A stretch of DNA of 39,110 nt, from positions 1 to 39,110 of IMG/VR virus record IMGVR_UViG_3300044533_000249, one strand, 5' to 3'. Source of the stretch: a virus. The position numbers were made by a program, and so were the translations under genes. This document shows, one piece after another, positions 26,339 through 29,696 of this stretch. Below the pieces are notes generated by a model. The model had not been told where the DNA came from. It searched no databases and saw only the letters and a list, made by a program, of their open reading frames with translations. How positions within the stretch are numbered: position 1 is the first letter of the stretch; every line of letters starts with the position of its first letter.

Positions 26339-26369
26339 GACCCTTTGGAGGGTCTGATCATGCTTTTCT
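26339..26369. terminator. Terminator between convergent operons
   Basis: GACCCT / AGGGTC (26339-26354) with loop TTGG, followed rightward by a T-rich stretch (TGCTTTTCTTT). It lies 30 bases after the lipoprotein stop and touches the end of the leftward gene at 26358, where it probably ends the rightward replication operon. Confidence 0.6.
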
Positions 26370-26579
26370 TTGCATTGCTGCAAGAATTTTTATTTTTGCT
26401 GTTTCGTCCACCTCAACCAGCGCCTCTTCGAGCGCCAAGCGAAGGCGGTTGCTTTCGTCCACGGCGGCGGTGATCGTCCATTGTGACCGTTGCCGCGCCT
26501 CTTCATATCCTTTAAGATAGGCCGCAGAAACTTCTTGCTGCAACGCCTTTAAGCGCCGCTCATATTCGGTGTCAGTCAC
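26358..26579 (-). CDS. Small coiled-coil protein after an internal terminator
   Basis: 73 residues from a GTG at 26579 (VTDTEYERRLKALQQEVSAA), almost wholly helical with heptad-like spacing. I place the start here because the upstream open frame (to a TTG at 26693) runs through a terminator hairpin and looks non-coding. No strong ribosome site is visible. Function unknown. Confidence 0.6.
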   Translation of the reverse strand: MTDTEYERRLKALQQEVSAAYLKGYEEARQRSQWTITAAVDESNRLRLALEEALVEVDETAKIKILAAMQRKA

Positions 26580-26588
26580 GTTAGCACC

Positions 26589-26618
26589 AAAAATAACCCC
26601 GCGTCGGTAGACACGGGG
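26589..26618 (-). terminator. Leftward intrinsic terminator
   Basis: Read on the minus strand, CCCCGTGTC pairs with GACGCGGGG (one G-T pair) around TACC and is followed by TTATTTTT. It lies after the DnaA-like gene and nine bases before the last small gene of the operon. Confidence 0.85.
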
Positions 26619-26689
26619 CCAAGTCAAGGGGAGGTCAATACGCTCCCGACTAATAGCAGATTCCCAGACCGTCGTATAGGTAGACGGGA

Positions 26690-26986
26690 TCAACGAGCAC
26701 GATCATACTTAGCCCCTCTCAGTTTAGCTTCCCAACATTTGACGCCATAGATCACCGTAGAATGGTCGCGCTTGAATATACGCGCAAGTTTTAAATAGCT
26801 AGAGTGGGTTTCATATCTAGCGCGATACATGGCCTTGTGACGAGCTTGCACGATCTTTGATACTCGTTTGTAGCCCACAATGTCTGACGGGAATATCAAG
26901 AACTCATCAGCCACTTCGGCTATTATTTCACGCACGAACACGTCGCCTTCCCTTTCATTGCTTGTGTCCCACCACGGCGCTCTCAC
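26690..26986 (-). CDS. DnaA domain IV-only DNA-binding protein
   Basis: 98 residues. VSKIVQARHKAMYRARYETH ... SYLKLARIFKRDHSTVIYGV matches the C-terminal DNA-binding domain of DnaA, including the RDH(S/T)TV signature (residues 73-78). R49 aligns with E. coli R407, and H75, S76, T77 with the base-contacting H434, T435, T436. The AAA+ domain is absent, so it cannot act as a full initiator. It is in the leftward operon whose two promoters each carry a perfect DnaA box, so autoregulation or competition with host DnaA is plausible. Confidence 0.88.
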   Translation of the reverse strand: MRAPWWDTSNEREGDVFVREIIAEVADEFLIFPSDIVGYKRVSKIVQARHKAMYRARYETHSSYLKLARIFKRDHSTVIYGVKCWEAKLRGAKYDRAR

Positions 26987-27174: not shown

Positions 27175-27355
27175 TTTGCAGTTCCACTTTTTCTCTTATG
27201 GCTTTCATGCGCGACGCTATGCTGCCAGGTAACTGATTCAGCGCTGCGCCGATCTGATGGTTGTCCAGCCCTTGTTGGCGCAAGTCCCATATGCGTTGCT
27301 CGTATGGCGTCAGCGCCGCAGGGTCTTTCATGTGTCTTTGTGGTTCTATCGTCAT
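27143..27355 (-). CDS. 70-residue HTH protein (sigma region 4-like)
   Basis: LTPYEQRIWDLRQQGLDNHQ ... IGAALNQLPGSIASRMKAI has the same HTH spacing as the protein at 20440-20619 and resembles sigma-70 region 4. The start is coupled by ATGA to the AlpA-like gene before it. Probably a small transcription regulator. Confidence 0.7.
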   Translation of the reverse strand: MTIEPQRHMKDPAALTPYEQRIWDLRQQGLDNHQIGAALNQLPGSIASRMKAIREKVELQNEEINEARFG

Positions 27356-27561
27356 TTATTTTTTGCCTCTTCCACCGAACTGACCGCGCGGCTATCCAGC
27401 CATGCGTCAAGATCTTTTTTACGGTATCTGACCGCGCCGCCTAACTTGCAATAGGCTGGCCCTTGACCAAGAAAACGAAAGCGTTCCATCGTTGGTTTTT
27501 TAAGCCCGACATACGCGGCGGCTTCGATGGTCGTCATTACTTCGGTTACTATCGTGCTCAT
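27352..27561 (-). CDS. AlpA/excisionase-family HTH protein
   Basis: 69 residues. MTTIEAAAYVGLKKPTMERF ... GQGPAYCKLGGAVRYRKKDL is the MerR-like winged helix of the AlpA/Xis (HTH_17) family, with the usual final DLDAWLDSR. Members bind DNA as excision factors or transcription regulators. No integrase is visible in the window, so a regulatory role is more likely. It is joined to both neighbours by ATGA overlaps. Confidence 0.8.
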   Translation of the reverse strand: MSTIVTEVMTTIEAAAYVGLKKPTMERFRFLGQGPAYCKLGGAVRYRKKDLDAWLDSRAVSSVEEAKNK

Positions 27562-27775: not shown

Positions 27776-27969
27776 TTGCGGTCAGCCTCGATAAGGGCAA
27801 GGATGCGGGTCGCGTGGCGCTTGCCGCGCAGTATGCGTTCCATCAGTTTGTAAGGCAGTTGACCATTGTCGAGGTTCACGTTGTTGGCCGTGATTCGCGT
27901 GAACTCAAAGCCCTTCTCTTTGTCTGGTATCGCGTCGCACGACCCGCCTTCGAATATGTAAGTAATCAT
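27772..27969 (-). CDS. 65-residue small protein
   Basis: The start at 27969 (MITYIFEGGSCDAIPDKEKG) overlaps the methylase-like stop as TAATG. The C-terminal half is basic and helical (LMERILRGKRHATRILALIE). No family recognised; it could be a small nucleic-acid-binding protein. Confidence 0.6.
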   Translation of the reverse strand: MITYIFEGGSCDAIPDKEKGFEFTRITANNVNLDNGQLPYKLMERILRGKRHATRILALIEADRK

Positions 27970-28517
27970 TATTGTCCCCATTGATCGGCCATAGCGTCCG
28001 CTATGCCTTGATATGTTTTTGATCTTTCTTTCCATCGGTCAGGGCTTGGCGGCATTTTGTGGATGCGCGCCTCGCGGCCATCAACGATGTTAGTCGGTTC
28101 TAACTTTGGTAAATTCTTTAACCATAAACACGTCGCTTTAGTTTCGCCATGTCCAAATTGCCAAGGTTGAATAATTTGATCCGGCTTTCTGATTTGGCTG
28201 CTTATGATGCTGATCGGATTCTCTAACGCTATGCGAGGAATAGGCGCGTCCAACAACATTTGCACAAACCGTAATGCGTCTGCTTGTTCCTCCTTTTTAT
28301 CTTTAAACCAACGCGCGCCACTCACGGCCAGATGCGTGCAAGGCGGATGAGCTATCATCAAATCCCATCTATCATCTAGAAATTGAATAACGTCGCCTTG
28401 ATAGTGCGGCCCGTTAGCTTCTGAGGCCAACAAATCGCACGATACCGCGTCATGCCCGCGCCGTCTGAAAGCGTCGCGCACTGCCCCGCTGAACTCACAA
28501 GCCACTAAAACGCGCAT
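27969..28517 (-). CDS. C5 cytosine methyltransferase-like protein
   Basis: 182 residues. Motif I is ACEFSGAVRDAFRRRGHDA (residues 6-24), the acidic strand end is SCDLL (D28), and motif IV is AHPPCTHLAVSG with C60 in the place of the catalytic Cys of C5 methylases. It is much shorter than a normal C5 methylase and lacks an obvious target-recognition domain. Such short proteins are widespread in phages. They may methylate DNA, for protection, or act on a nucleotide; activity is not provable from sequence. Confidence 0.75.
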   Translation of the reverse strand: MRVLVACEFSGAVRDAFRRRGHDAVSCDLLASEANGPHYQGDVIQFLDDRWDLMIAHPPCTHLAVSGARWFKDKKEEQADALRFVQMLLDAPIPRIALENPISIISSQIRKPDQIIQPWQFGHGETKATCLWLKNLPKLEPTNIVDGREARIHKMPPSPDRWKERSKTYQGIADAMADQWGQ

Positions 28518-29024: not shown

Positions 29025-29048
29025 TTGACTCTCCTTTTGATGTTTGTA

Positions 29049-29077
29049 GTTATACACATGTTTAAAAGTTATGTCAA
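29049..29077 (-). promoter_or_regulatory. Leftward sigma70 promoter P2 with DnaA box
   Basis: On the minus strand, TTGACA (29072-29077) and TATAAC (29049-29054) are separated by exactly 17 bases. A perfect DnaA box TTATACACA lies on the plus strand at 29050-29058, over the -10 and into the spacer. Its ACATGTGTATAACT core is identical to that of P1. Confidence 0.85.
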
Positions 29078-29266
29078 ATACTTTTTTACATTACGGCGAA
29101 AAAAAAGAACATGTTTTTTAGCGATGCGCGTCGCCATTGCGCGGGTGAGACAAACGCCTTCACGCAACACAATCGTCTCGCGTGGCGTCTCGCGGTTAAA
29201 GCCGCTCACATGCCAAACATATCCGGTAGGAGTTTTGGTGGTGGCCCAGGCGTAACAGTTATACAT
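29069..29266 (-). CDS. 65-residue protein, first gene of the leftward operon
   Basis: MYNCYAWATTKTPTGYVWHV, then SGFNRETPRETIVLREGVCL and a basic end (KKHVLFFRRNVKKYLT). AAAGGA precedes the ATG, about 30 bases downstream of promoter P1. The P2 -35 element lies over its stop codon. No family recognised; its position suggests one of the first proteins made after infection. Confidence 0.65.
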   Translation of the reverse strand: MYNCYAWATTKTPTGYVWHVSGFNRETPRETIVLREGVCLTRAMATRIAKKHVLFFRRNVKKYLT

Positions 29267-29295
29267 GTGCGTGTCCTTTACGTTTGATGTTGTGA

Positions 29296-29324
29296 GTTAT
29301 ACACATGTGCACAACTAGTGTCAA
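29296..29324 (-). promoter_or_regulatory. Leftward sigma70 promoter P1 with DnaA box
   Basis: On the minus strand, TTGACA (29319-29324) and TATAAC (29296-29301) have 17-base spacing. A perfect DnaA box TTATACACA lies at 29297-29305 on the plus strand, across the -10. The palindrome CACATGTG sits just upstream of the -10. Confidence 0.88.
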
Positions 29325-29365
29325 TAGTTATTTTACACAAAATAAGATATTTTTTTACGGTGTGG

Positions 29366-29428
29366 GCGGTGTTAAGTAGTAAAAATGCGGTGTTGGGTAG
29401 TGAAAATGCGGTGTTGGGTAGTGGTTTG
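29366..29428 (+). repeat. Three tandem 21-bp repeats
   Basis: Units at 29366-29386, 29387-29407 and 29408-29428 share GCGGTGTT(GG/AA)GTAGT; a partial fourth starts at 29429. The top strand is G/T-rich and the repeat lies in non-coding DNA. Confidence 0.85.
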
Positions 29429-29479
29429 GCGGTGGTTGGGTTGGGGCAACTGTCTGTTAATGAACCCGTTTGTCGAGTT

Positions 29480-29530
29480 GGGTATATATATGATTAAAAA
29501 TCAATTTAAAAATATTGTTATACTATTGTG
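29480..29530. other. AT-rich tract in the control region
   Basis: Runs such as TATATATATGATTAAAAATC and ATTTAAAAATATTGTTATAC make this the most AT-rich stretch of the intergenic region. It is flanked by the 21-bp repeats and their inverted copies, as expected for a DNA unwinding element. Confidence 0.5.
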
Positions 29531-29565
29531 CAGTGCAGCGCAAAACTTACCAGCAACTTTTTGGG

Positions 29566-29585
29566 CACTACCCAAACTACCCAAC
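29566..29585 (-). repeat. Two inverted copies of the 21-bp repeat core
   Basis: CACTACCCAA (29566-29575) and ACTACCCAAC (29576-29585) are the reverse complement of the TTGGGTAGT core of the direct repeats about 150 bp upstream, so the same site lies on both sides of the AT-rich tract. Confidence 0.7.
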
Positions 29586-29696
29586 TCGCCAAACTCATTA
29601 ACTTTTGGTAATGTTTGGTAAGGCGCGACACGGACGTTGAAAGCGATGTGAGGTGCGTTGAAAGCCAAAAACCAGGCTTCGCCCCCTCTCTTACGC

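What the first reader, a model, noticed from the sequence alone, without database searches (positions are those of the whole stretch)
29049..29324. Twin promoters with DnaA boxes over the -10, facing an operon that encodes a DnaA DNA-binding domain
P1 (29296-29324) and P2 (29049-29077) are both TTGACA-N17-TATAAC, and each has a perfect TTATACACA DnaA box covering five bases of the -10. The operon they drive encodes, at 26690-26986, a 98-residue protein that is only DnaA domain IV with the RDHSTV recognition motif intact. The simplest model is an autorepressor that uses host DnaA boxes and also senses or competes with host DnaA, linking phage early expression to the host replication state. Boxes, promoters and motif are visible; the regulatory loop is inference.
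Basis: partly seen in the sequence, partly recalled or inferred. Interest (0 to 1): 0.88.

Follow-up and report, generated by a model that had tools for sequence, protein, structure and literature searches.

The report
Phage early promoters with DnaA-box operators
A group of uncultured phages carries a small gene for just the DNA-reading end of the bacterial replication initiator DnaA, and the promoters that drive its early operon contain DnaA recognition sites, which suggests the phages turned a piece of the host replication machinery into a switch for their own early genes.

Summary
P1 and P2 are TTGACA-N17-TATAAC, each with a perfect TTATACACA box over the -10; they are one duplicated cassette. 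The operon's last gene encodes a 98-aa DnaA domain IV-only protein (Pfam 1e-17; model matches DNA-bound DnaA domain IV). In 29 of 30 viral relatives with this gene, early promoters carry DnaA-box-type sites next to the -35 or -10, in several layouts. Enrichment: 13/49 TTGACA sites upstream versus 1/163 elsewhere, and 16/113 versus 2/201 in a test predicted beforehand. Relatives lacking the gene lack the sites, but that is one phylogenetic contrast. The gene is the only early-operon product in all 11 representative loci compared. Two clades with altered DNA-reading residues have altered sites. Best reading: a phage transcription factor that reads DnaA boxes, most likely a negative autoregulator of the early operon. 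Binding, sign of regulation, and any role of host DnaA are untested. A DnaA-like regulator of phage-like particles (GafA) is known, so this is a new variant.

The parts
29319..29324 (-). P1 -35 hexamer TTGACA
29296..29301 (-). P1 -10 hexamer TATAAC (17-nt spacer)
29297..29305 (+). DnaA box TTATACACA over P1 -10 (perfect to TTATNCACA)
29306..29314 (-). second, abutting inverted DnaA-box-like half site TTGTGCACA in P1 spacer (7/8 to TTWTNCACA)
29072..29077 (-). P2 -35 hexamer TTGACA
29049..29054 (-). P2 -10 hexamer TATAAC (17-nt spacer)
29050..29058 (+). DnaA box TTATACACA over P2 -10
29059..29067 (-). second, abutting inverted half site TTTTAAACA in P2 spacer (7/8 to TTWTNCACA)
29276..29337 (-). 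promoter cassette copy 1 (62-nt block shared with copy 2, 73% identical)
   Evidence: D1
29029..29090 (-). promoter cassette copy 2
   Evidence: D1
26690..26986 (-). domain-IV-only DnaA-like protein, 98 aa, GTG start; last gene of the early operon before a terminator-like hairpin; motif RDHSTV
26594..26621 (-). terminator-like hairpin after the domain-IV gene
26358..26579 (-). conserved ~73-aa gene downstream of the terminator (start GTG at 26579 by homology), kept next to the domain-IV gene in most relatives
29069..29266 (-). first small ORF of the operon (65 aa), between P1 and P2
27969..28517 (-). DNA methyltransferase-like gene in the operon (phrog_757, 7.7e-74)
27352..27561 (-). HTH_17/excisionase-like gene in the operon; absent from nearly all relatives that have boxes

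Best explanation
The 98-aa protein is a phage-encoded transcription factor made of DnaA domain IV alone. It recognises DnaA-box-type 9-mers placed inside the phage's own early promoters. As the product of the last gene of the early operon it builds up late, binds the boxes between and over the -35 and -10 of P1 and P2 (in this clade an abutting inverted pair, TTrTNCACA|TGTGTATAA), blocks RNA polymerase and so turns the early operon down (negative autoregulation). Shown: sequences, fold class by prediction, association of gene and boxes across many phages. Inferred: binding, repression, timing. Host DnaA may bind the same boxes, but nothing here requires it.
For: Boxes, promoters and gene verified. 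Fold: AlphaFold pLDDT 87, best solved matches are DnaA domain IV bound to a DnaA box (3pvp rmsd 0.7, 1j1v); the key base-reading positions are kept (R399 equivalent, D-H-S-T-V), R399 reading 5'-TTA and the 434-451 helix reading TnCACA per PMC5742627. In 29 of 30 viral relatives plus MW202483, early promoters carry box-type 9-mers in several layouts: (i) inverted pair over the -10, two of them perfect pairs, in L006 and L027; (ii) single TTTTNCACA, no TATAA -10; (iii) single TTATCCACA/TTATCCCCA two bases after the -35. TTTTNCACA fits the E. coli consensus TTWTNCACA (PMC5835720). Enrichment after TTGACA: 13/49 upstream versus 1/163 elsewhere versus 1/190 in gene-lacking relatives (Fisher 1.6e-8, 3.3e-9). 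Prediction written down first, then found: 16/113 versus 2/201, p=2.8e-6; strict boxes 6 versus 0. Domain IV is the only operon product found in all 11 representative loci; the operon's other HTH genes are not general. Clade ii changes the R399 position to N and promoter-box position 3 to T; the RTHAAV clade changes the reading helix and has AAACNCACA instead of A[AT]ATC[CA]ACA at gene starts.
Against: No binding or expression data. Gene presence is a single clade on the primase tree, so the gene-minus comparison is one phylogenetic contrast. The residue-site changes are also one event each, and members of the N399 clade keep A at position 3 in their start-associated sites. P1 and P2 are duplicates. 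Some sister-clade box hits are start-associated sequences rather than promoter spacers. Some gene-positive loci lack a clear promoter box (L127, L030). A DnaA-like regulator of a phage-like element, GafA, is an activator, so the sign could be opposite.
Confidence: 0.6

Rival explanations
1. Host DnaA is the intended reader: the boxes let host DnaA repress or tune phage early promoters, tying phage expression to host replication state. The phage domain IV competes with host DnaA at these boxes (anti-repressor) or at oriC.
For: The boxes are good host-type DnaA boxes (TTATACACA, TTTTCCACA class; PMC5835720 describes graded repression of mioC by such boxes). Nothing in the data excludes host DnaA binding.
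Against: Relatives at similar distance without the domain-IV gene lack the boxes; the RTHAAV clade lacks them and has altered sites; clade iii boxes are often TTATCCCCA, off the host consensus. Host unknown.
Confidence: 0.15
2. The domain-IV protein is an activator of the early (or another) operon, as for GafA, recruiting RNA polymerase at promoters with poor -10 elements.
For: The window-clade promoters have a non-T last -10 base (TATAAC/G) and clade ii has no TATAA at all; GafA with a DnaA-like domain is an activator that contacts RNAP omega (PMC9638019).
Against: Boxes lie over the -10 or between -35 and -10, where a bound protein would usually block polymerase (general knowledge); the protein has no recognised extra domain for polymerase contact; its gene is last in the operon, so it is absent at the start of infection.
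Confidence: 0.12
3. The boxes belong to a phage replication origin in the adjacent intergenic region (iteron-like GGTGTTGGGTAGTG repeats, AT-rich stretch), with domain IV as an origin-binding factor.
For: Direct and inverted GTTGGGTAGTG repeats at 29366-29600 and a low-GC, skew-changing stretch; the gene lies close to the primase-helicase gene in the relatives where both were seen.
Against: Box-bearing promoter cassettes recur two or three times within one operon, several hundred bases to about a kilobase apart, always at promoter positions; a single origin does not need that.
Confidence: 0.06
4. Coincidence: the box is just the TATAA -10 plus TGTG, and the repeats are copies of one promoter cassette; another regulator or none acts there.
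For: Five of nine box bases are the -10; P1 and P2 are duplicates. Abutting inverted boxes occur in other viral contigs without a domain-IV gene (36 of 38).
Against: In clades ii and iii and the sister clade the box is not at a TATAA -10, and enrichment persists; the left half sites match TTWTNCACA at 7-8 of 8 in 8 of 9 distinct cases.
Confidence: 0.07

Closest known systems
GafA, activator of the Rhodobacter gene transfer agent, and the separate small DnaA-like gene before gafA in Hyphomicrobiales (PMC9638019)
   Same: DnaA-domain-IV-like DNA-binding domain used as a transcription regulator of phage-like genes; in Hyphomicrobiales as a separate small protein.
   Different: GafA is fused to other domains, contacts RNAP omega and activates gene transfer agent genes; I found no mention of DnaA-box operators in the passages read; its R399 equivalent is E. 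Here the protein is domain IV alone, with R at that position and DnaA boxes in its own promoters.
DnaA autoregulation of dnaA and DnaA repression of mioC in E. coli (PMC5835720)
   Same: DnaA boxes at a promoter; binding through domain IV; repression, with autoregulation at dnaA.
   Different: Full-length ATP-dependent DnaA there; here no ATPase domain, phage genes, abutting inverted boxes over the -10.
Start-associated sequences (SAS) of cluster K mycobacteriophages (PMC3203893)
   Same: Short non-palindromic repeats just before the starts of many genes; binder, if any, unknown.
   Different: Here the sister-clade repeat TAACATATCCACA contains 8 of 9 bases of a DnaA box and changes in the clade where the domain-IV reading helix changes.
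Phage small-protein early autorepressors such as lambda Cro
   Same: Small HTH protein binding operators within its own early promoters (from general knowledge).
   Different: Different fold and operator; no lysogeny gene was recognised in the genes scanned here; not tested as a homologue.

Membership tests
DnaA domain IV (Pfam Bac_DnaA_C) | Significant match to the domain model | tested here: met
   PF08299 64.2 bits against cut-off 31.5
DnaA domain IV (Pfam Bac_DnaA_C) | Domain IV fold | tested here: met
   AlphaFold pLDDT 86.9; Foldseek 3pvp, 1j1v, 1l8q at probability 1.00
DnaA domain IV (Pfam Bac_DnaA_C) | Base-reading residues (R399 equivalent, D-H-S/T-T-V) | tested here: met
   R and RDHSTV present in window protein (alignment by eye); roles per PMC5742627
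DnaA domain IV (Pfam Bac_DnaA_C) | Binds DnaA boxes | not testable with these tools
   needs gel shift or footprint
DnaA replication initiator | AAA+ ATPase domain III and N-terminal domain I | tested here: not met
   98 aa, only Bac_DnaA_C found
GafA-type regulator | DnaA-like domain fused or adjacent to the GafA C-terminal (DUF6456/sigma-like) domain | tested here: not met
   only Bac_DnaA_C in the protein; the scanned operon neighbours match no such Pfam family (HTH_17 and a weak GerE only)
GafA-type regulator | Interaction with RNAP omega | not testable with these tools
   needs two-hybrid or pull-down
DnaA-box-regulated promoter | Consensus DnaA box at or near promoter elements | tested here: met
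DnaA-box-regulated promoter | Change of transcription on binding | not testable with these tools
   needs reporter or in vitro transcription
Start-associated sequences (cluster K type) | Repeated non-palindromic element a few bases before start codons of many genes | tested here: met
   in sister clades and classes ii/iii; the window clade has a different element (CATCAAA...)
Start-associated sequences (cluster K type) | Consensus GGGATAGGAGCCC | tested here: not met
   sequence is TAACATATCCACA or TAACAAATC[CA]ACA

The most novel reading that the evidence does not exclude
A whole phage group uses a captured DnaA domain IV as its early regulator, reading box-type sites both in early promoters and, in sister clades, before the start of each early gene. 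Because the same boxes attract host DnaA, the protein both autoregulates and competes with host DnaA (at phage promoters and perhaps at oriC), coupling phage early expression to, or blocking, host replication initiation.
Probability: 0.2. Interest if true: 0.85.

Novelty: new variant of a known kind. Interest (0 to 1): 0.63.

Why it matters
DnaA is nearly universal in bacteria, and small phage proteins made of its DNA-binding end turn up across virus databases with no tested role. Here the candidate binding sites are visible upstream of the gene in dozens of contigs, so the role becomes directly testable. The sites also give a candidate reader for start-associated repeats, whose binder was left open in another phage group in 2011 (PMC3203893), and a natural series of domain IV variants paired with candidate altered sites.

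Tried and rejected
Chance or -10 artefact: rejected because clades without a TATAA -10 keep the box. Other HTH genes of the operon as the box reader: HTH_17 found in 1 of 8 window-clade loci and in no other clade, GerE-like gene absent from sister clades. Prophage or host identification through the bacterial genome collection: no relative found. Abutting inverted boxes as a diagnostic sign: 38 viral stretches carry them, only 2 with the gene, both in this clade, so the arrangement alone is not diagnostic. Phylogenetically independent gain/loss test of gene and box: only one independent pair, so uninformative. Distant Bac_DnaA_C phage proteins (L057-L081): no strict boxes upstream of the gene; only L066 has any, downstream. 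Library searches found no paper on a phage domain-IV-only regulator; absence from that library is not proof of novelty.

Full report
1. What is in the window. The window is a virus record of 39110 bases, a podovirus-type genome with P22-like portal and coat genes, close to MW202483 from Manatee Spring (88.6% identical over part of the region), where the gene is annotated 'dnaa protein helix-turn-helix'. A leftward run of small genes goes from about 29300 to 26690 and ends in a strong terminator-like hairpin at 26621-26594. Its last gene encodes 98 aa with Pfam Bac_DnaA_C and nothing else.

2. Each TTATACACA is one half of an 18-bp abutting inverted pair: TTGTGCACA|TGTGTATAA at P1 and TTTTAAACA|TGTGTATAA at P2 (minus-strand reading). 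Across the window's clade the left half matches TTWTNCACA at 7 or 8 of 8 positions in 8 of 9 distinct cases (background 0.001 per site), with position 5 free, as in a DnaA box. Two relatives (L006, L027) carry perfect pairs. The promoters are copies of one cassette (two or three copies per operon), so these cases are not fully independent.

3. Comparative test. Thirty viral relatives of the protein were fetched. In 29 of them (all but L030) an early promoter carries a box-type 9-mer, in different layouts: inverted pair over the -10 (window clade, L027); TTGACA-N12-TGTGNAAAA, that is TTTTNCACA, with no TATAA (L008-L014, L021-L024, L026); TTTACA-N2-TTATCC[AC]CA (L015-L020, L025, L028, L031); and an inverted pair close to the -35 in L029. 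A more distant sister clade, found through the primase gene, often has TTGACR followed directly by [CTA]TATCCACA and a second TATCCACA 26-27 bp on, bracketing the -10. Counting TTGACA hexamers followed within 30 nt by a box with at most one mismatch: 13 of 49 upstream of the gene on its strand, 1 of 163 elsewhere on the same contigs, 1 of 190 in primase relatives without the gene. A prediction was written down before new loci were fetched; on contigs not seen before the result was 16 of 113 versus 2 of 201, strict boxes 6 versus 0. Some of the 16 are start-associated repeats rather than promoter spacers, which weakens but does not remove the contrast.

4. Which protein reads the boxes. Among products of the early operon only the domain-IV protein is found in all 11 representative loci; the operon's HTH_17 and GerE-like genes are not general. 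A regulator encoded elsewhere is not excluded. Two natural variants point the same way. First, in the clade with single TTTTNCACA promoter boxes the residue equivalent to E. coli R399 is N (motif HKNKPK against YKRVSK or HKRRSK); R399 reads the 5' TTA of the box (PMC5742627). Second, a clade with the degenerate reading helix RTHAAV has no promoter box in the two loci tested (L156, L158), and across its loci the start-associated repeat mostly reads AAACNCACA instead of A[AT]ATC[CA]ACA, a change at box position 4, inside the TnCACA part read by that helix. Each is a single evolutionary event, and the first is not mirrored in that clade's start-associated repeats, so they are suggestive, not proof. 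The residue numbering on the phage protein is my alignment by eye from known E. coli DnaA residues.

5. Limits. On the primase tree the gene is one clade, so absence of boxes in relatives without the gene is one contrast. L127 and L030 have no clear promoter box. Distant or longer Bac_DnaA_C phage proteins have no boxes, so this is not a rule for all phage domain IV proteins. Host unknown; transcription and binding not measured.

6. Mechanism. Boxes over the -10 or between -35 and -10 suggest polymerase exclusion, and the position of the gene at the operon's end suggests delayed negative feedback. [quoted passage not shown] An activating role, as for GafA (PMC9638019), remains possible. Host DnaA should also be able to bind TTATACACA; whether it matters is open.

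7. Novelty. DnaA-type domains as regulators of phage-like genes are known from GafA, and DnaA boxes at promoters are known from bacteria. The combination found here, a domain-IV-only phage protein with DnaA-box operators in its own early promoters, kept in several layouts across a phage clade, was not found in the held library. I file it as a new variant of a known kind.

Noticed in passing
L105, L118, L141, L089, L018, L025 and relatives; e.g. L118 reverse strand 2174 and 2516: Start-associated repeats TAACATATCCACA or TAACAAATC[CA]ACA stand just before the ribosome site of many early genes in sister clades and contain most of a DnaA box; in the RTHAAV clade they mostly read TAACAAACNCACA.
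   Followed up: partly
26358-26579 (-): A ~73-aa gene (VTDTEYERRLKALQQEVSAAYLKGYEEARQRSQWTI...), probably coiled coil, lies after the terminator next to the domain-IV gene and is conserved in most gene-positive relatives and not found in the gene-negative ones; no Pfam or PHROG match.
   Followed up: partly
29366-29600: Iteron-like direct and inverted repeats (GCGGTGTTGGGTAGTG / CACTACCCAA) with an AT-rich stretch between the divergent operons; a possible replication origin.
   Followed up: no
29257-29269: A third partial copy, AGTTATACATGTG, overlaps the start codon region of the first small ORF but is not a full box.
   Followed up: no
L063-L075, L078: Other phage proteins fuse a DnaA domain IV to a C-terminal region with HG and CxxC motifs, possibly a nuclease-type zinc site; no strict DnaA boxes nearby except downstream in L066.
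   Followed up: no
L261, L265, L276, L281, L283, L292: Some viral contigs, two of them from records of about 156-162 kb, carry a perfect abutting inverted DnaA-box pair TTATCCACATGTGGATAA just before a ribosome-site-like AAGGAGAGTATACC or AAGGTGAGTATACC, with no domain-IV gene in the stretch held.
   Followed up: no
27969-28517 (-): DNA methyltransferase-like gene with best DNA similarity, after the close relative, to Methanosarcina virus MetMV and cyanophages; a mosaic cassette present in only some relatives.
   Followed up: no
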